Source of the DNA: Thermaerobacter sp. PB12/4term
GTDB taxonomy: Bacteria > Bacillota > Sulfobacillia > Thermaerobacterales > Thermaerobacteraceae
DNA: 64,000 nucleotides
Direction: 5' to 3'
Assembly (NCBI RefSeq): GCF_003403315.2
Contig: NZ_CP048407.1
Coordinates: 1,240,001 to 1,304,000 of the forward strand
Shown here: positions 6,159-23,768 of the stretch, in pieces
Numbering within the stretch: the first letter of the stretch is position 1
Layout of the letters: every line of letters begins with the position of its first letter
The notes under the pieces: generated by a model
What the model was told of the DNA's origin: nothing
The model's database searches: none
The model's input: only the letters and a program-made list of their open reading frames with translations
Position numbers and translations under genes: made by a program

Positions 6159-6743
6159 GTGCTCGAGGGACGGCGCGTGGGTTTCGCGCTGTGCGCGTCC
6201 CATCACAATCTGGACACGGTCCTGGGGTGGGTGGAGCGGTTCGTGGCCGAGGGGGCCGATGTGTACCCCATCGTGTCCCATTCGGTGGCCACGGTGGCCA
6301 CCCGCCACGGGACGCCGGAGCAGTGGCTGGCCAGGCTGGAAGCCGTCACGGGCCGCTCGCCCTGGCGGACCATTCCCGAGGTGGAACCCATCGGGCCGGG
6401 GCTCCTCCTGGACGTGCTGGTCATCGCGCCCTGCACCGGCACCACCCTGGCCAAGCTGGCCAACGGCTTCAGCGATTCGGCGGTGCTGATGGCGGCCAAG
6501 GCCCAGTTGCGCAACCAGCGGCCTGTGGTCCTGGCCATCTCGACCAACGACGGCCTGGGGCTCAACGCCCGCAACCTGGCCACGCTGCTCAACGCCAAGA
6601 ACGTCTACTTCGTTCCCTTTGGCCAGGATAATCCCGGCGAAAAACCGAACTCTCTGGCGGCACGCTTCGACCTGTTGCCCCAGACGGTGGCCGCGGCGCT
6701 GGAGGGGCGACAGCTCCAGCCCTTGCTGGTAACGCCCCGGTAG
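6159..6743 (+). CDS. dpaB: Dipicolinate synthase subunit B
   Basis: A 194-aa flavoprotein-like subunit of dipicolinate synthase (SpoVFB). It shows the flavodoxin-type start VGFALCASHHNLD and the phosphate-binding stretch IAPCTGTTLAKLANGFSDSAV. The end is typical of the family (LNAKNVYFVPFGQDNPGEKPNSLAA). GTG 6159 follows GGGGAGGGG with good spacing and gives the usual length of about 200 aa; the longer in-frame ATG at 6093 has no ribosome site. It works with DpaA 124 bases upstream. Confidence 0.95.
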   Translation: MLEGRRVGFALCASHHNLDTVLGWVERFVAEGADVYPIVSHSVATVATRHGTPEQWLARLEAVTGRSPWRTIPEVEPIGPGLLLDVLVIAPCTGTTLAKLANGFSDSAVLMAAKAQLRNQRPVVLAISTNDGLGLNARNLATLLNAKNVYFVPFGQDNPGEKPNSLAARFDLLPQTVAAALEGRQLQPLLVTPR

Positions 6744-17592: not shown

Positions 17593-17768
17593 CCGGCCGG
17601 GCCGGTTCGCGGCGCCGGGGAAGGCCTCGTACGGTGGCTGCCGGCGGGCGTGATGCCGGTCGGGGAGGGATCGCCCGGCGGCATGCCCGTGACACCCGGC
17701 GGCGTTCCCTTCCATTCTTACGACACAATGCCGCGCGGCGCCCGGCTCAACGGCCCGAGCCTCATGGC

Positions 17769-17775
17769 CATACTA
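17769..17775 (+). promoter_or_regulatory. Candidate sporulation-sigma -10 (CATACTA) before the first GH18 gene
   Basis: CATACTA matches the -10 of forespore/mother-cell sigma factors and lies 25 bases before the ATG of a spore-type GH18 gene. The -35 region is not convincing. The same CCATACTAC string stands upstream of tepA (12290-12298). Confidence 0.3.
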
Positions 17776-17799
17776 CGGCCGGAAAGCGAGGTGAGGGCC

Positions 17800-19032
17800 A
17801 TGCGGAATCGCGCCTGGGTCTGGGTGCTGGTGGCCGTGCTGGTGGGCGCCGGCATCTGGATGGCGGCCGGTGGCGATCGCAACCCGGTGGCCAAGCCGCG
17901 GGCCGACCGGAGCAACGACAACCTGCAGCTGCCCGCCAAGCCGGCGCCGCGGGCCAAGGTGCCGGGCCAGCTCTTCATCCTTGGCTTTTACGACGAGACC
18001 GAGGAGGCCCGGGGCGAGGACATCCTGGCCACCCTGCGCCGGCACCGCAACCAGATCGAATACCTGTCGCCCTTCTGGTACAGCGTGCGGGCCGACGGCT
18101 CCATCGTCGACCGCAGCGACCGGGACCTGCGGGACTTCGCTGCGCGGGAAAACATCAAGCTGATGCCCCTCTTCAACAACCATGAGGGGACCGATGCCTT
18201 CCTGCACGACGCCGGCGCCCGGCGCCGGGCCGTGACCAACATCGTCCACCTGGTTCGCCAGCATGGTTACGGCGGCGTCCAGATCGACTTCCAATTGCTG
18301 GAGCCCCAGAGCCGCCAGGAGCTGACGACCTTCCTGAGGGAACTTCGCCAGGCCCTGCCGGAAGACAAGGCGATCACCGTGTCCGTCATCCCCCACCGCC
18401 ATCAGGAGGACAGCGCCCAGCACAGCAAGGACGCCTACAGCTACAAGGGCCTGGCCCAGTATGCCCGCATCGTCCTGATGGCGTACGACCGGCACGGCGA
18501 GCTGACCGGCCCCGGGCCCGTCTCGCCTCTGGACTGGGTGGGAGAGGTGGTGGCCGCCGCCCGGGAGGACGGCGTCCCGGCCGACAAGATCTGGCTGGGG
18601 ATTCCCGCCTACGGCTACGACTGGGCGGAGAACCGCGACCGGGCCACGCCCGTTCCCCTGCGAGAGGTGCGGACCCTGACCCGGCAAAGGGACATCCAGG
18701 TGCAGCGCAACGAAGACGGGATCCCCCACTTCACCTACGTGGACGAGCGGGGAGTCCGCCACACCGTCTGGTACGAGGACGAGGTCTCCGTGGCCCGCAA
18801 GGTGCGCCTGGCCCGCCGCCACAACCTGTACGGCGTGGCCATCTGGCGCCTGGGATACGAGGATGAACCGTACTGGCGCATGCTGCTGCGGGAGACCGGC
18901 CGCACCGGCATGGACATGACGCCGGACCGGAACCGGCAGCGGGAAAGCGAGAACAAGGATCCCGACGCGGATCCCGGGGAGATCCAGGAGGGGCATCCGG
19001 GCAACGACCCGGACGGCAACGGCGGGACCTAG
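17800..19032 (+). CDS. GH18-family spore-type protein with altered catalytic site
   Basis: A 410-aa protein with one N-terminal membrane or signal helix (about residues 5-22) and a GH18 barrel of the YaaH/YdhD spore peptidoglycan hydrolase type (about 55-355). The second GH18 gene at 22230 has the catalytic motif DGVNIDFE, but here the same position reads GGVQIDFQ (residues 158-165). The acid/base Glu is thus Gln165 (codon CAA, 18292-18294) and the first Asp is Gly158. The conserved MAYDRHG and IWRLGYEDE segments remain. Hydrolysis is therefore doubtful; a binding or regulatory role is inferred. The charged tail (residues 370-410) is unique. ATG 17800 follows GCGAGGTGAGG. Confidence 0.88.
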   Translation: MRNRAWVWVLVAVLVGAGIWMAAGGDRNPVAKPRADRSNDNLQLPAKPAPRAKVPGQLFILGFYDETEEARGEDILATLRRHRNQIEYLSPFWYSVRADGSIVDRSDRDLRDFAARENIKLMPLFNNHEGTDAFLHDAGARRRAVTNIVHLVRQHGYGGVQIDFQLLEPQSRQELTTFLRELRQALPEDKAITVSVIPHRHQEDSAQHSKDAYSYKGLAQYARIVLMAYDRHGELTGPGPVSPLDWVGEVVAAAREDGVPADKIWLGIPAYGYDWAENRDRATPVPLREVRTLTRQRDIQVQRNEDGIPHFTYVDERGVRHTVWYEDEVSVARKVRLARRHNLYGVAIWRLGYEDEPYWRMLLRETGRTGMDMTPDRNRQRESENKDPDADPGEIQEGHPGNDPDGNGGT

Positions 19033-19067: not shown

Positions 19068-19094
19068 AGGGGCGGAGCACCAGGCTCCGCCCCT
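19068..19094. terminator. Bidirectional terminator-like hairpin between convergent genes
   Basis: A perfect 11-bp stem, AGGGGCGGAGC (19068-19078) and GCTCCGCCCCT (19084-19094), with a 5-base loop lies between the GH18 gene and the minus-strand operon. No T-run is present on either side. Confidence 0.6.
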
Positions 19095-19122: not shown

Positions 19123-19233
19123 TCACCATGAGCGCCGGGGTGGCCGGGTCACGCTCCACAGCCAGTAGCCGACGAACAGCACGAACCCCCACGGCAGAAT
19201 CCAGTTGCTCAGGATCGAAAGCAGGGTGACCAT
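19123..19233 (-). CDS. 36-aa single-helix membrane peptide
   Basis: A short reading frame on the minus strand. ATG 19233 is preceded by GGGAGG (19240-19245 on the plus strand) with a 6-base spacing. The peptide is a single hydrophobic, Trp-rich helix: MVTLLSILSN, a WILPW segment and GYWLW, ending in a basic TRPPRRSW tail, so a C-in orientation is likely. It lies 34 bases downstream of the dehydrogenase and would be the last gene of the ComA operon. I do not recognise the family. Its size, helix and position suggest a small membrane adaptor or sporulation peptide; function is unknown. Confidence 0.65.
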   Translation of the reverse strand: MVTLLSILSNWILPWGFVLFVGYWLWSVTRPPRRSW

Positions 19234-19267
19234 GGCGGGCCTCCCGTCTTCAGGGTTCGCCCCCATT

Positions 19268-20305
19268 CTAGCCTTGCAGCGGCCCCTGCCGCAACGCACC
19301 CGCCGTGGCCGGCAGGAAGGCCGGCTGCAGCGGCGGCAGGCCGCGCAGCACGCGCAGCACGTCTTCGGCCACCGAACGGGCGATTCGCTCCTGCGCCTGG
19401 ACCGTCAGCCCTGCGATATGGGGCGTCAACACCACGTTGGGCAGTCCCCGCAGGGGATCACAGGGACCCGGTGGTTCCAGGGCCCTTACATCCAGGGCCG
19501 CCCCGGCCAGATGGCCGCTGCGCAGCAGGTCCGCCAGGGCCGCCTCGTCCACCACGCCGCCCCGGCCGGTGACCACCAGCCGGGCTCCGGGTTTGAGGGA
19601 CGCCAGCAGGGACCGGTCCAGCAGGCCACGGGTATCGGCGCGCAGCGGCAGGAGGACGACCAGGTAATCCGACCAGGCCAGCAGGTCCTCCAGGGGCCGC
19701 CAGTGGATGCCCAGGGCTTGCCATTCGGGATCCTCGGGCCCCCGTCGGGGATGAAAGGTGGCCACGGCCCCCACCAGGGGCCGGAGCAGGGGCACCAGGG
19801 CCCGGCCGATCCGGCCAAGGCCCAGGATGCCGACCCGGGTTCCGGCCAGCTCGTCCCCCAGCAGGGCCTGGCGGGCCCAGAGCCCCGAGGCTCCCATGGC
19901 CGTGGCGGCGGGCAGCCGCCGGGCCAGGGCCAGCATCTGGGCCAGGACGAACTCGGCCACGGCCCGGGCGTTGCCACCGGGGGCGTATACCACCGTCACC
20001 CCGTGGCGCGCCGCCGCCTCGCCGTCGATGTTGTCAAGTCCTGCACCCAGGCGCCCCACCACCCGCAAGCGTGGTGCGGCCTCGAGGAGCGCGTCGTCGA
20101 CCCGGAGCTGGTTGCGGACCACCAGGCCGGTGGCGTGCTGCAGCAGGCGCAGCAGGCGCGCCGGGTCGCGGGCCAGCCCGGGGTCGTAGACCACCCGGCA
20201 GCCTGCCCGCTGGAGGATCTCCACCGCCGACCCGGGACAGAACTCGGCCACCACCACCGGTCCCGCCAGGGACTCCGGCACCGGCACGCTGGCCACGGCT
20301 CTCAC
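19268..20305 (-). CDS. D-isomer-specific 2-hydroxyacid dehydrogenase, possible sulfolactate dehydrogenase
   Basis: A 345-aa NAD-dependent dehydrogenase of the SerA/SlcC superfamily. The Rossmann loop GLGRIG is at residues 162-167, and the catalytic triad is Arg248 (GRGG), Glu277 (RALEPP) and His296 (PHIAG). The family conserves 2-hydroxyacid/2-oxoacid chemistry. GTG 20305 overlaps the stop of the phosphosulfolactate synthase gene (GTGA), so the two are translationally coupled. The context makes a sulfolactate/sulfopyruvate oxidoreductase plausible, but a phosphoglycerate or other hydroxyacid substrate cannot be excluded. No ACT or ASB regulatory domain is present. Confidence 0.87.
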   Translation of the reverse strand: MRAVASVPVPESLAGPVVVAEFCPGSAVEILQRAGCRVVYDPGLARDPARLLRLLQHATGLVVRNQLRVDDALLEAAPRLRVVGRLGAGLDNIDGEAAARHGVTVVYAPGGNARAVAEFVLAQMLALARRLPAATAMGASGLWARQALLGDELAGTRVGILGLGRIGRALVPLLRPLVGAVATFHPRRGPEDPEWQALGIHWRPLEDLLAWSDYLVVLLPLRADTRGLLDRSLLASLKPGARLVVTGRGGVVDEAALADLLRSGHLAGAALDVRALEPPGPCDPLRGLPNVVLTPHIAGLTVQAQERIARSVAEDVLRVLRGLPPLQPAFLPATAGALRQGPLQG

Positions 20306-21135
20306 CCCTGGGGAAACCGGACGGAGCGCAGGTCGGGCCGCCCGAGCAGGGCGGCGCGCAGGGTGTCGCCGCGCAGGCCGTGGCGCAAGGCCTCCAGGGC
20401 CAGGACGTCCGCAGGCTGCACGTTGCCCAGGTTGACGCCGGGCCCGAAGCGCAGGATCAGGTCCTGTTGCTGGTGGACCTGCGGCGCCTCGAAGACCAGC
20501 ACGTAGGGGTCGGGCAGCCCGCGCACCAGGGCCTCCAGTTCGTCTTCATCCACCCGGCCCTGCGCATCGTAGATCACGATGCCCTTGCCCGACTCCCGTG
20601 CCTCCACGATGACCTTCTCCACCCCCGCCTCAAGGTCGTCCAGCACCTGCTGGTGCAGGCGCAGGGTGGAGACCCGATCGGCGGGATGCTTCTTGCCGAC
20701 CTCGCTCACCACCCCCAGGCCCTCCGCGAGCAAGGCGCGGATCAAGTCGCGGCGCACCTCGGGGGCGATGTCCACCGTGCCGTCGGACACCTCCACGTGG
20801 GTGAAGCCCACCTCCCGAACGGCCTCGAGAAAGGCCCGGAAGCGTCCCTGCACCAGGGCCACCTCCAGGAACGTGCCGCCCGGGTAGACGGCAATGCCGG
20901 CCGCGCGGATCCGCTCCACCTTGGCCTTGAGCACCGCCGGGGGGTAGCAGGCGGGGGTGCCGAAGGCCAGCTTCCAGTAATCGATGCAGTGCCCGGCCAC
21001 TTCGATGAGGTCCGCCGTGGCGCGGGGCCCCAGCCCTTTGTCGAGGATCATGGTCAAACCGCGCTGGCGGGGCTTGGGAGGTCGTCCCGCCAGGGGGGGC
21101 GAGACCACGCCGTTCCAGGGCGCAGGCAAGCTCAT
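20302..21135 (-). CDS. comA: Phosphosulfolactate synthase (ComA/YitD family)
   Basis: A 277-aa TIM-barrel enzyme that adds sulfite to phosphoenolpyruvate to make (R)-phosphosulfolactate, first described in methanogen coenzyme M synthesis. Bacillus has a homologue (YitD), and sulfolactate is abundant in its spores. The family pattern is clear: TMILDKGLGP at the start, CIDYWKLAFGT, YPGGTFLEVA, VEVSDGTVDI, EVGKKHP, KVIVEARESG and LGNVQPADVLALE near the end. ATG 21135 follows GGAGGAGGAAAA on the minus strand. No comB phosphatase gene is in the window. Coupled to the dehydrogenase downstream. Confidence 0.93.
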   Translation of the reverse strand: MSLPAPWNGVVSPPLAGRPPKPRQRGLTMILDKGLGPRATADLIEVAGHCIDYWKLAFGTPACYPPAVLKAKVERIRAAGIAVYPGGTFLEVALVQGRFRAFLEAVREVGFTHVEVSDGTVDIAPEVRRDLIRALLAEGLGVVSEVGKKHPADRVSTLRLHQQVLDDLEAGVEKVIVEARESGKGIVIYDAQGRVDEDELEALVRGLPDPYVLVFEAPQVHQQQDLILRFGPGVNLGNVQPADVLALEALRHGLRGDTLRAALLGRPDLRSVRFPQG

Positions 21136-21304: not shown

Positions 21305-22147
21305 ATGGACGTCAACCTGGGGGCACTGCTCAGCAACCTGTTCTGGTTCGTCCTGATCCTCTGGTCCCTGCTGCCCCTGCTGCGGCAACGGCGCATTGCC
21401 GACCGCCGCCTGCAGGTGATCCGCCAGCTGGAACGGGAGCGGGGCTCGCGGGTCATCACCCTGATCCACCGCCAGGAGTCCCTGAGCCTTCTCGGCATCC
21501 CCCTGACCCGGTACATCACCGTCGACGACTCGGAGCAGGTTCTGCGGGCCATCCGCTACACCCCGCCCAACATGCCCATCGACCTCATCGTTCACACGCC
21601 GGGCGGCCTGGTGCTGGCGGCCGAGCAGATCGCCGAGGCCATCCGGCGGCATCGGGGCCGGGTGACCGTGATGGTACCCCACTACGCCATGAGCGGCGGC
21701 ACCCTCATCGCCCTGGCGGCGGACGCCATCTGGATGGACGAGAACGCCGTGCTGGGTCCCGTGGACCCCCAGCTGGGCGGCTACCCCGCGGCCAGCATCC
21801 TGGCCGCCATCCGCCAGAAGGGCCCCGACAAGGTGGACGACAAGACCTTGATGCTGGGTGATCTGGCCGAAAAGGCCATCACTCAGGTCCGCCAGACCGT
21901 CCAGCGGCTGCTCCAGGACCGCCTTCCGGCCGGGGACGCGCGGCGCATCGCCGAGGCGCTGACGGAAGGCCGCTGGACCCACGACTTTCCCATCGGCTGC
22001 GACGAGCTGCGCGCGCTGGGGCTGGAGGTGCGCTGCGAGCTGCCGGACCTGGTATACCGGCTGATGGAACTCTACCCCCAGCCCGACGGGCGGCGCCCTT
22101 CGGTCCAGTTCATCCCGGTGCCCTATGCCGAGCGGCCCACGCGGTGA
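21305..22147 (+). CDS. SDH-type membrane serine protease (ClpP/crotonase fold)
   Basis: A 280-aa protein with one N-terminal membrane helix (about residues 8-25) and a serine dehydrogenase proteinase (SppA/ClpP-like) domain. Conserved elements are IDLIVHTPGGLVLAAEQIAEAI, the nucleophile Ser130 in PHYAMSGGT, and the MDENAVLGPVDPQLGG block. It is divergent from comA with a 169-base shared upstream region. ATG 21305 has only a weak ribosome site. Members are often paired with membrane quality-control genes; the substrate is unknown. It is the second ClpP-fold protease in the window after TepA. Confidence 0.88.
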   Translation: MDVNLGALLSNLFWFVLILWSLLPLLRQRRIADRRLQVIRQLERERGSRVITLIHRQESLSLLGIPLTRYITVDDSEQVLRAIRYTPPNMPIDLIVHTPGGLVLAAEQIAEAIRRHRGRVTVMVPHYAMSGGTLIALAADAIWMDENAVLGPVDPQLGGYPAASILAAIRQKGPDKVDDKTLMLGDLAEKAITQVRQTVQRLLQDRLPAGDARRIAEALTEGRWTHDFPIGCDELRALGLEVRCELPDLVYRLMELYPQPDGRRPSVQFIPVPYAERPTR

Positions 22148-22229
22148 GTCCCGCCGGGGGCCCTGCAGTAGAGGTTCGGCGCCGGAGGGCGGCTGCGAGG
22201 GGCCGATTCCAGAGAGGGGAGGCGATGGT

Positions 22230-23768
22230 GTGAACACCGAAGGACCGGAACATCACCACGGGCCGGAGCTGCACCGCGGGAGCGCAGGCCGTTCCGCCGG
22301 GCGGGGCAGGCAACCGGCCGCCGGGCCGCCTGCTCCGGCGGGCGAGTCCGGGGCTGGGAATCCCGGCCGGCCGGCGGTGGCCTTCGACCGCGGCGCGGCC
22401 GCAGGTGACGGTGGAAACGCGGAGGGCCGGGAAGCGCCGGCAGGACGCACCCCCGTCCAGTGGGACGCCGGCGGGGGCCCTGCCGGTGGCAGCCAGCATG
22501 CCGGCCCCGCCGGGGGCGGCCCGTCCGGCGGAGGTGGCCCCGCCGGCCCCCGGGGGGTGGGTCCCGGGGGCAGGCCGCCGGGTGGTGGCGGCGGTCCCTG
22601 GGGCGGTGGCGGCGGGCGCGGTGGAGGCTGGTGGGCGAGCCTGGGCGGGTGGAACGGGATCTGGGACAAGCTGCGCACGGACCGGCGCTGGCAGGTCGGC
22701 GCCGTGACGGCGGGCCTGTTCCTCCTGATCCTGGCGACCCTGCCGGGGGAGCCCGGACCCCAGGGGCAGCCGCCGCTGCGCAAGCCGGCCGGGGTGGCGC
22801 GCCCCGAGGTACTGGGATTCTTCGAGAACGGGTGGTCCCCCGTCTTCGGCGATTCCTTCCCTTCGGTGAAGAAGCGGCCCGATCTCATCGACAGCATCAG
22901 CCCCTTCTGGTACTCCATCCGTTCCGATGGGAGCCTCTGGCCCCAGGAGATTCGCCAGGAGGTCATCGATTTCGCCAGGGCGCAAGACATCTTGCTGATC
23001 CCGCTGTTCAACCTCCTGCAGAGCGGGGGCAACGAGGCCGGGTTCCTGGTCGACCCGGCGGCCCGTTCCCGGGCCGTGCAGGCCATCGTGCGCGAGGTCC
23101 AGCAGCGGGGCTATGACGGGGTCAACATCGACTTCGAGCTGCTGCCGCCCGACGCGGAGCCTTTGATGTCCGATTTCATCCGGGAGCTGGACGCGGCGCT
23201 GCCGGAGGACAAGCGGCTGGACATCGCCGCCTTCCCCAAGGTGGACGTAGATCCCTCGGTCCACGGCGGGCACAACTGGCAGGTGTTTGCCCGGCACGCG
23301 GACCAGGTGATCCTCATGGCCTACGACCGCCACTACCTGGGCAGCCAGCCGGGTCCCGTGTCGCCGGCCGGCTGGGTGGAAGCCAACATCAAGGAGATGC
23401 TCAACGCCGGGATCGCAGGGAACAAGATCCTGCTGGGCGTGGGGGCCTACGGGTACGACTGGCCGGCCGGGGCCGGTCCCGGCAACGAGGCCAGTTCCAC
23501 CCCCGTGCCCCTCTGGCAGGTCAAGCAGATCATCGACCGCCACGGCGTGCGGCCCCAGTGGGACCGGGAGAGCCAGAACCCCCACTTCACCTATACCGGT
23601 GAGGGAGGCCAAGAGCGCGAGATCTGGTACCTGGACGAGCGGGTGCTGGAGCAGCGCATCGATCTCGTGCGGAAGTACAGCCTGGGTGGCATTGCCATCT
23701 GGCGGCTGGGGTACGAGGACGACGCCTTCTGGAACGTGATCGAGAGGGCGTACGGCCCGCGCCGGTAG
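22230..23768 (+). CDS. GH18-family spore peptidoglycan hydrolase-like protein
   Basis: A 512-aa protein. The first 148 or so residues are a Gly/Pro/Ala-rich, probably disordered cytoplasmic region, followed by one membrane helix (GAVTAGLFLLILATL, about 157-171). The GH18 barrel (about 190-510) has an intact catalytic motif DGVNIDFE at residues 296-303 with Glu303. It closely resembles the GH18 domain encoded at 17800, including FWYSIR, MAYDRHY and IWRLGYEDD, so the two are paralogues. GTG 22230 follows GAGAGGGGAGG. By family it should cut N-acetylglucosaminyl bonds in spore cortex or cell wall; the cytoplasmic low-complexity tail is unusual. Confidence 0.9.
   Translation: MNTEGPEHHHGPELHRGSAGRSAGRGRQPAAGPPAPAGESGAGNPGRPAVAFDRGAAAGDGGNAEGREAPAGRTPVQWDAGGGPAGGSQHAGPAGGGPSGGGGPAGPRGVGPGGRPPGGGGGPWGGGGGRGGGWWASLGGWNGIWDKLRTDRRWQVGAVTAGLFLLILATLPGEPGPQGQPPLRKPAGVARPEVLGFFENGWSPVFGDSFPSVKKRPDLIDSISPFWYSIRSDGSLWPQEIRQEVIDFARAQDILLIPLFNLLQSGGNEAGFLVDPAARSRAVQAIVREVQQRGYDGVNIDFELLPPDAEPLMSDFIRELDAALPEDKRLDIAAFPKVDVDPSVHGGHNWQVFARHADQVILMAYDRHYLGSQPGPVSPAGWVEANIKEMLNAGIAGNKILLGVGAYGYDWPAGAGPGNEASSTPVPLWQVKQIIDRHGVRPQWDRESQNPHFTYTGEGGQEREIWYLDERVLEQRIDLVRKYSLGGIAIWRLGYEDDAFWNVIERAYGPRR

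What the first reader, a model, noticed from the sequence alone, without database searches (positions are those of the whole stretch)
19123..21135. Coupled ComA - hydroxyacid dehydrogenase - micropeptide operon
Phosphosulfolactate synthase overlaps by 4 bases a SerA/SlcC-type dehydrogenase, followed by a 36-aa membrane peptide. This suggests a pathway from PEP and sulfite to sulfolactate and then to sulfopyruvate, or the reverse, in a spore former. No ComB phosphatase is adjacent. Using an SlcC-like instead of a ComC-like dehydrogenase would be a new combination, and placement among spore genes points to a spore solute.
Basis: partly seen in the sequence, partly recalled or inferred. Interest (0 to 1): 0.55.

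Follow-up and report, generated by a model that had tools for sequence, protein, structure and literature searches.

The report
Conserved sulfolactate gene pair in thermophiles
Two neighbouring genes, one that joins sulfite to a sugar-breakdown product and one that looks like a sulfolactate-oxidising enzyme, stay side by side in many related bacteria, which points to a little-known route for making sulfur compounds such as sulfolactate; the tiny gene beside them is real but probably unrelated.

Summary
The genes are there. ComA (20302-21135, minus strand) passes the curated equivalog cut-off; next come a D-2-hydroxyacid dehydrogenase (DH) and a 36-aa membrane peptide conserved in 5 of 5 family genomes sampled. 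The 4-base overlap is probably a longest-ORF artefact. ComA-DH adjacency is real: the DH lies just 3' of comA in 28 of 79 comA loci counted (28 genomes, 10 families; sample enriched for DH), 17 co-directional, 11 convergent. In trees the DH lies outside SerA (a separate full-length SerA exists) and groups with SlcC-type DHs from suyAB-comC clusters. ComB is 1.2 Mb away; no ComC-family protein was found. The DH is most likely a sulfolactate/sulfopyruvate oxidoreductase, with a sequence hint of NADP(H). Open: ComA's product is (R) while SlcC takes (S); direction and end product are unknown. The peptide is probably not part of the module: in two order relatives a probable homologue sits beside ftsK, away from comA. 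The spore-solute idea is unshown; comA also occurs in genomes without Spo0A. Unexpectedly, ten relatives have comA-DH-panD operons whose PanD lacks the aspartate-binding Arg54, a possible cysteate-to-taurine branch.

The parts
20302..21135 (-). comA: phosphosulfolactate synthase (PEP + sulfite to (2R)-phosphosulfolactate), 277 aa
   Evidence: TIGR03849 313 bits, cut-off 280; PF02679; aligned along its core with M. jannaschii ComA 1qwg
19268..20296 (-). SlcC-like D-2-hydroxyacid dehydrogenase, probable start GTG 20296 (longest ORF begins at 20305); no ACT/ASB domain
   Evidence: PF02826/PF00389 only; tree outside SerA; motifs VRNQ, GRLGAGLDN, TPHIAG; catalytic Arg/Glu/His kept; NAD-type Asp replaced (FHPRRG); start
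20302..20309 (-). AGGGGTGA: comA stop overlapping the likely ribosome-binding site of the DH
   Evidence: read directly; relatives L073/L074 have ATG at DH codon 4
19123..19233 (-). 36-aa single-span membrane peptide gene; real, but judged a neighbour and not part of the module
   Evidence: 5 of 5 family genomes sampled; probable homologues in L160/L161 beside ftsK
19068..19094 (.). perfect 11-bp G+C-rich inverted repeat, loop of 5, between the convergent peptide gene and GH18a; no T-run, so not a textbook terminator
   Evidence: read, checked; not listed as a terminator

Best explanation
comA and the DH form a C3-sulfonate module. ComA joins sulfite to PEP, giving (R)-phosphosulfolactate. ComB, encoded elsewhere in the genome, removes the phosphate to give sulfolactate. 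The DH interconverts sulfolactate and sulfopyruvate in place of the absent ComC. Shown here: the families, presence and absence in the genome, the recurrent adjacency and the phylogenetic place. Inferred: substrate, enantiomer, direction and end product. In the window's lineage the DH probably prefers NADP(H) (inferred from sequence). The peptide is an independent small membrane-protein gene that lies downstream.
For: DH within 700 bases 3' of comA in 28 of 79 comA loci (28 genomes, 10 of 34 families), 17 same strand and 11 convergent, so adjacency outlives inversions. ComA-linked DHs as one clade are rejected only at the border (p-AU 0.0435), which would mean the pairing arose more than once. 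The same 99/97 clade holds DHs from suyAB-DH-comC-type clusters of the same class (L163, L167, L173) and from plasmid sulfolactate clusters. Of the eight top-ranked plasmid places, all opened (H1-H8), six have the DH directly followed by an Ldh gene, five of these also with a UxaA pair and a sulfite or sulfate exporter; H5 is a SerA in a serine cluster and H8 neither. Sulfite supply near comA: Sat within 5 kb in 8 genomes, CysH in 6, including both order relatives L077 and L078. Own genome: ComB present, PF02615 absent, a separate full-length SerA at 562271-563842, 557 bits.
Against: Stereochemistry: ComA/ComB give (R)-sulfolactate (PMC5695019) while SlcC is an (S)-sulfolactate enzyme (PMC12421959); the DH keeps the Arg/Glu/His triad of D-specific enzymes. 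The window DH lacks the NAD Asp of SlcC and SerA, and NADP-linked 2-hydroxyacid dehydrogenases usually reduce (general knowledge). No downstream enzyme was found: TIGR03846 over cut-off in 0 of 21 genomes. 51 of the 79 comA loci show no DH within 5 kb, some of them cut short by contig ends. Closest solved structures by sequence are phosphoglycerate dehydrogenases, and by bit score some serA-annotated Rhizobium plasmid hits (H26, H27, 170 bits) equal or exceed the SlcC-context hits (149-161 bits).
Confidence: 0.55

Rival explanations
1. The DH works the other way round: an NADPH-dependent sulfopyruvate reductase that returns stray sulfopyruvate to sulfolactate (or makes the (S) enantiomer), so that ComA, ComB and DH all feed a sulfolactate pool.
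For: 18 of 18 ComA-linked DHs without a PanD neighbour lack the NAD-binding Asp, most with Arg following (HPR, PPR), while 10 of 10 PanD-linked ones and 5 of 5 SlcC-context ones in the tree keep it. The reaction would fit the (S) preference of SlcC.
Against: No source of sulfopyruvate other than sulfolactate or cysteate is evident in this genome; cofactor inferred from sequence only; the Asp pattern follows clades and is not 28 independent events.
Confidence: 0.22
2. The DH is a phosphoglycerate dehydrogenase or another 2-hydroxyacid dehydrogenase, and comA is only a neighbour or shares a regulator.
For: Best solved-structure matches are PHGDH; TIGR01327 is the best NCBIfam hit; both substrate-side Arg positions of SerA are kept (VRN, GRLG).
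Against: TIGR01327 245 bits against a cut-off of 454; a true SerA is elsewhere; outside the SerA clade; VRS/GRAG/HLG motifs not met; adjacency across 10 families.
Confidence: 0.1
3. ComA-DH-peptide is one functional unit, the peptide being a membrane partner (for example of an exporter or of the DH).
For: Same strand, 34-base gap, conserved in 5 of 5 family genomes sampled.
Against: In G056 and G075 a probable homologue is convergent to ftsK and on a different contig from comA-DH; outside the family no peptide match reached E 0.001 anywhere in the 151 genomes.
Confidence: 0.06

Closest known systems
SlcC, (S)-sulfolactate dehydrogenase (slcC-comC-suyAB sulfolactate degradation)
   Same: D-2-hydroxyacid dehydrogenase, VRN / GRLG.GLDN / TPHIAG motifs, common clade 99/97 to the exclusion of SerA; 43% identity to the Paracoccus seriniphilus cluster enzyme
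   Different: Next to comA, not suyAB/comC; no ComC family member in the genome; NAD Asp replaced; not inside the 5-row SlcC clade
YitC/YitD (ComB/ComA) of Bacillus subtilis, spore sulfolactate
   Same: ComA plus ComB encoded, Spo0A_C match in the own genome; sulfolactate is about 5% of dry weight in B. subtilis spores (PMC517825, passages)
   Different: comA and comB not linked here; comA linked to a dehydrogenase; no evidence of sporulation control
Methanogen coenzyme M pathway ComA-ComB-ComC-ComDE
   Same: first two enzymes
   Different: ComC (Ldh_2) absent, a D-2-hydroxyacid dehydrogenase beside comA; ComDE beta subunit not found over cut-off
Bacterial coenzyme M pathway of Xanthobacter Py2 (pXAUT01)
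   Same: ComA homologue 50% identical
   Different: There comA is followed by two fumarate-lyase-type genes and a deaminase-type gene, no dehydrogenase of this kind
SerA, phosphoglycerate dehydrogenase
   Same: superfamily, catalytic triad, substrate-side arginines
   Different: outside the SerA clade, below the TIGR01327 cut-off, no regulatory domain, Arg-Asn instead of Arg-Ser

Membership tests
ComA (phosphosulfolactate synthase) | score above TIGR03849 / PF02679 cut-offs | tested here: met
   313 bits vs 280; 290 vs 25.2
ComA (phosphosulfolactate synthase) | PEP + sulfite condensation activity | not testable with these tools
   needs enzyme assay
SlcC | D-2-hydroxyacid dehydrogenase domains and catalytic Arg/Glu/His | tested here: met
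SlcC | groups with SlcC rather than SerA | tested here: met
   46-row clade 99/97 with SlcC-context rows, 15 SerA rows apart 100/90; 94/89 in the first tree
SlcC | lies within the SlcC clade proper (orthology) | tested here: not met
   5 SlcC rows form their own 100/100 clade; the window is in a separate 18-row group, 92/86
SlcC | NAD+-type Asp in the cofactor loop | tested here: not met
   FHPRRG instead of xDP
SlcC | neighbouring suyAB/comC | tested here: not met
   neighbouring window genes; PF02615 absent from the genome; suyAB was not searched genome-wide
SlcC | oxidises (S)-sulfolactate, not 3-phosphoglycerate | not testable with these tools
   needs enzyme assay
SerA | TIGR01327 cut-off and place in the SerA clade | tested here: not met
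   245 vs 454 bits
ComC (Ldh_2) | PF02615 domain | tested here: not met
   no PF02615 hit in the DH or in the genome
comA-DH-peptide operon | peptide tied to comA-DH beyond the family | tested here: not met
   L160 and L161: probable homologues beside ftsK, comA-DH on other contigs
spore solute module (YitCD type) | sporulation-controlled promoter | tested here: inconclusive
   one sigK-like match with up to one mismatch allowed, no sigE/sigG/sigA-like site in the 170 bases before comA; no sigma-70 site
PanD (the comA-linked homologues of relatives) | Arg54 that binds the substrate beta-carboxylate | tested here: not met
   absent in 16 of 16 distinct comA-linked PanDs (one beside a comA remnant); present in 5 of 19 other distinct PanDs aligned; role from PMC3975893 and PMC6969166 passages

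The most novel reading that the evidence does not exclude
This class of Firmicutes has a ComA-based sulfonate pathway in which an SlcC-type dehydrogenase replaces ComC and, in several families, a PanD paralogue without the aspartate-binding Arg54 decarboxylates cysteate to taurine: sulfate to sulfite (Sat/CysH), phosphosulfolactate (ComA), sulfolactate (ComB), sulfopyruvate (DH), cysteate (an aminotransferase), taurine (PanD-like). The window carries the short form that stops at sulfolactate/sulfopyruvate, with an NADP-type DH. The step order would match the comA-DH-panD gene order.
Probability: 0.25. Interest if true: 0.78.

Novelty: new variant of a known kind. Interest (0 to 1): 0.55.

Why it matters
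ComA homologues are in 113 of 151 sampled genomes of this class, and as far as I know (recalled) their products there are untested. A dehydrogenase that travels with comA, and in some families also a changed PanD, gives a concrete order of steps to assay. If right it adds a third use of phosphosulfolactate (beside coenzyme M and spore sulfolactate), links sulfate assimilation to a sulfonate solute or taurine, and poses a clean stereochemical question: does a D-type dehydrogenase accept the (R)-sulfolactate made by ComA?

Tried and rejected
DH as SerA: rejected. DH as ComC: rejected. Peptide as module partner: made unlikely by L160/L161. Coenzyme M as end product: no sulfopyruvate decarboxylase beta over cut-off in 21 of 21 genomes tested (three f25 genomes have hits of 109-114 bits against a cut-off of 221.5). 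The COG1900 gene near comA-DH-panD in f25 looked like the CoM synthase MMP16 (PMC12068725), but in L081 it scores 138 bits against a TIGR03287 cut-off of 364 and lies next to a PRK04334-type gene, so homocysteine synthesis is likelier. ThrC-like genes beside DHs (L164, L162) as cysteate synthase: they fit a threonine synthase model (PRK08197, 612 and 537 bits) and not TIGR03844 (77 and 68 bits, cut-off 325). Promoter sites before comA: nothing usable. AlphaFold and fold search were not used: the folds are not in doubt and would not decide the substrate.

Literature searches: phosphosulfolactate synthase; sulfolactate dehydrogenase + SlcC; sulfolactate + spores; Thermaerobacter + sulfolactate (52, none); cysteate + taurine + PanD; sulfolactate + taurine biosynthesis; taurine + cysteate + aspartate decarboxylase (78, none); coenzyme M biosynthesis; aspartate decarboxylase + Arg54 (91); comA + sulfolactate + dehydrogenase + Sulfobacillus. 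No listed title or abstract start names a comA-SlcC or comA-panD pairing. The library is open-access only. I saw passages of ten papers (PMC6303947, also its SerA section; PMC12421959, PMC9826295, PMC517825, PMC10562698, PMC5695019, PMC12068725, PMC3975893, PMC6969166, PMC10743139), so this is no proof of absence. Denger and Cook 2010 and Bonsen 1969 are known to me only through these papers and recall.

Rows dropped: tree 1 leaves out incomplete SerA rows L150-L152, duplicates of the same genes, and L166 (its match held a stop and the extension failed). Tree 2 also leaves out E. coli PdxB, E. coli SerA, two own-genome paralogues and the Roseomonas row as long or distant branches, and keeps the first 14 of 27 class SerA rows plus Deinococcus. 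L114 (DH + Ldh, no UxaA pair) and L181 (unannotated) count as SlcC rows. One search lists five fetched loci (L198-L201, L241) in which its ComA queries found nothing over 80 bits; they are not in the 79. Loci were picked with preference for genomes with a DH hit, so 28 of 79 is no random-sample frequency; the floor is 28 of 113 comA genomes. Of the other 41 not counted, 37 were not read and four (G050, G072, G105, G136) were read only at such a locus. In the PanD tree four comA-linked rows (L241, L243, L247, L248) were labelled free; the counts correct this.
Full report
WHAT IS THERE. On the minus strand of the window, comA (20302-21135) is followed by a D-2-hydroxyacid dehydrogenase gene (DH, longest ORF 19268-20305) and by a 36-codon ORF (19123-19233). 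ComA passes the curated equivalog model TIGR03849 (313 bits, cut-off 280) and PF02679, and aligns over its core with M. jannaschii ComA (1qwg, E 1.7e-55). The DH has PF02826 and PF00389 only. The window is G000:C1:1240001-1304000 of a 2.82-Mb single contig.

START OF THE DH. The GTGA overlap exists as letters, but in L073 and L074 the in-frame codon 4 is ATG (GTG in the window and L072). In all four genus genomes the comA stop lies inside a purine-rich stretch (AGGGGTGA in the window) that would be an SD for codon 4; in the same-family genome L075 an in-frame ATG follows 12 bases after the stop. I take 20296 as the likelier start; the genes are closely coupled but probably do not overlap.

PATHWAY GENES IN THE GENOME. 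ComB (PF04029) is present at 2478143-2478790, 1.2 Mb away. Of six ORFs scanned around it none is another recognisable sulfonate gene; an AP_endonuc_2-type gene and CcmF are near. ComC's family (PF02615) is absent. A full-length SerA lies at 562271-563842 (557 bits, cut-off 454); four 2-Hacid_dh_C proteins give matches over 160 bits in this genome, the window DH being one. TIGR03846 (sulfopyruvate decarboxylase beta) has no hit over its cut-off in 21 of 21 genomes tested, the own genome included. suyAB was not searched in the own genome.

CONSERVATION OF THE PAIR. ComA is found in 113 of 151 class genomes, ComB in 112 of 151. I counted 79 comA loci in 72 genomes of 34 family codes; the DH is within 700 bases of comA in 28 loci (28 genomes, 10 family codes), always on its 3' side, 17 times on the same strand and 11 times convergent. 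Loci were chosen with preference for DH-positive genomes, so only the floor (28 of 113 comA genomes) is safe; 51 of the 79 loci show no DH within 5 kb, some cut short by contig ends. ComB is within 700 bases of comA in 8 genomes, Sat within 5 kb in 8, CysH in 6. In the two order relatives of the window the DH is convergent to comA, followed by cysH and sat (L077, L078).

WHAT KIND OF DEHYDROGENASE. In a tree of 71 rows, 29 SerA rows form one clade (97/93), while the ComA-linked DHs group with SlcC-context enzymes (94/89). Without long branches and with more rows the split is firmer: SerA 100/90, and a 46-row SlcC-like clade 99/97. SlcC context means a UxaA pair (suyA/suyB type), a transporter, this DH and an Ldh gene on Paracoccus and Methylobacterium plasmids; L114 has DH and Ldh but no adjacent UxaA pair, and L181 is unannotated and taken as SlcC because PMC12421959 names S. 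mexicanum. Of the eight plasmid places ranked first, six have DH followed by Ldh; H5 is a SerA in a serine cluster and H8 is neither. By bit score, though, some serA-annotated Rhizobium hits (170 bits) are at or above the SlcC-context hits (149-161 bits); these were not opened. In three genomes of the same class the cluster is GD_AH - DH - Ldh_2 (L163, L167, L173), with a SAF-domain gene in front confirmed in L163 and L173 and a GntR regulator in L163. So one clade occurs in two independent sulfolactate contexts. ComA-linked and DH-PanD DHs as a single clade are rejected only at the border (p-AU 0.0435). Motifs separate the groups: VRN..., mostly GRLG.GLDN, and TPH(I/V/L)AG-like in SlcC-like enzymes against VRS..., GRAG.G and mostly TPHLG in class SerA. 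PMC6303947 (SerA section read) says SlcC falls in or beside SERA, does not accept 3-phosphoglycerate, and that SERA has an Arg-Ser phosphate motif and a conserved NAD-specifying Asp. The window DH has Arg-Asn, and His where that Asp sits. Across ComA-linked DHs the Asp is lost in 18 of 18 without a PanD neighbour and kept in 10 of 10 with one; this follows the clades and so is not 28 independent events.

THE STEREOCHEMICAL PROBLEM. PMC5695019 (passages) gives (R) for the ComA and ComB products and for ComC's substrate. PMC12421959 (passages) gives S-sulfolactate to sulfopyruvate to R-sulfolactate for the SlcC/ComC pair. A D-type dehydrogenase beside ComA therefore either accepts the (R) form, or makes or uses (S)-sulfolactate. 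The sequence does not decide this, and it is the main reason my confidence is 0.55 and not higher.

THE PEPTIDE. It is conserved in 4 of 4 genus genomes sampled and in the fifth family genome G083, where the peptide contig also carries the DH 3' end. Weak near-full-length matches in G056 and G075 (E 0.003 and 0.018) are backed by position: both lie convergent to and just behind ftsK, as minus-strand ORFs of 35 and 37 aa with G-rich ribosome sites, whereas comA-DH is on other contigs. In the window ftsK, GH18a and the peptide are consecutive. The peptide thus seems to follow ftsK, not comA. No Pfam or NCBIfam hit.

SPORES. Spo0A_C is found in 141 of 151 genomes, own genome included; all 10 of the 10 without it have ComA, six of them at least 90% complete. 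ComA is thus not tied to sporulation in this class, though in B. subtilis yitCD is under sigma K and E and sulfolactate is about 5% of spore dry weight (PMC517825, passages). The flanks in the window are uppP, ftsK, GH18, SDH protease, GH18 and acyl-CoA dehydrogenase, not specific spore genes. No convincing promoter was seen. The spore-solute idea stays possible and unshown.

AN UNEXPECTED EXTENSION. In ten genomes (G024, G057, G044, G128, G062, G129, G130, G108, G144, G150) the order is comA > DH > panD. G006 has comA > panD, and G071 and G132 have DH > panD without comA beside it. In f10 and f44 comA lies with a Sat-like gene, comB and panD, and in f10 also a class-III aminotransferase. The comA-linked PanDs lack Arg54 (16 of 16 distinct sequences, one of them beside a comA remnant), the residue that binds the beta-carboxylate of a substrate analogue and whose change to alanine leaves M. 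tuberculosis PanD inactive (PMC3975893, PMC6969166, passages). Among 19 other distinct PanDs aligned, 5 keep it, two of them next to PanC. In the three f25 genomes PanC was not found although PanD was, so this PanD is unlikely to serve pantothenate by the usual route there. Against: in G130, G108, G144, G128, G008 and G064 the Arg-less PanD is the only PanD while PanC is present, and 14 of the 19 PanDs away from comA are Arg-less too, so they may still make beta-alanine. The window's own genome has one PanD, with Arg54 (TGARFETY, L236), and no panD near comA. I therefore give the taurine reading 0.25.

VERDICT. Real, conserved and not ordinary: a ComA paired with an SlcC-like dehydrogenase. 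Most likely a sulfolactate/sulfopyruvate module; enantiomer, direction and product open; peptide probably unrelated; spore role unproven.

Noticed in passing
L081, L087, L088, L184, L185, L193, L194, L195, L215, L243: comA > DH > panD operons in relatives, with a PanD lacking Arg54; in three of them (f25) a COG1900 (HcyBio) gene lies nearby and PanC was not found.
   Followed up: partly
L163 3422-7740, L167 5246-8771, L173 4474-8747: Apparent sulfolactate-degradation clusters suyA-suyB-slcC-comC in three genomes of the same class (G006, G134, G032), all of which also have comA.
   Followed up: partly
comA loci of relatives: An MFS transporter within 700 bases of comA in 16 genomes (11 family codes) and a DUF441 membrane protein within 5 kb in 24 genomes; candidate sulfonate exporter, unexplained.
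   Followed up: no
window 19123-19233; L160 about 6450-6550; L161 about 6448-6549: A conserved 35-37-aa single-span peptide gene, convergent with ftsK in two order relatives; no known family.
   Followed up: partly
window 17650-19032 and 22125-23768: Two GH18 paralogues, each with a hydrophobic N-terminal stretch by eye, flank the peptide-DH-comA-protease stretch; perhaps a local duplication.
   Followed up: no
L164 4905-7222, L162 20-2402: SlcC-like DH genes beside a threonine synthase (PRK08197 type) in family f39.
   Followed up: partly
PDB 9cm1: A solved entry named phosphosulfolactate synthase has 60 chains; not looked into.
   Followed up: no
G136:C35 (L241): A comA remnant with an internal stop next to an Arg-less panD.
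   Followed up: no
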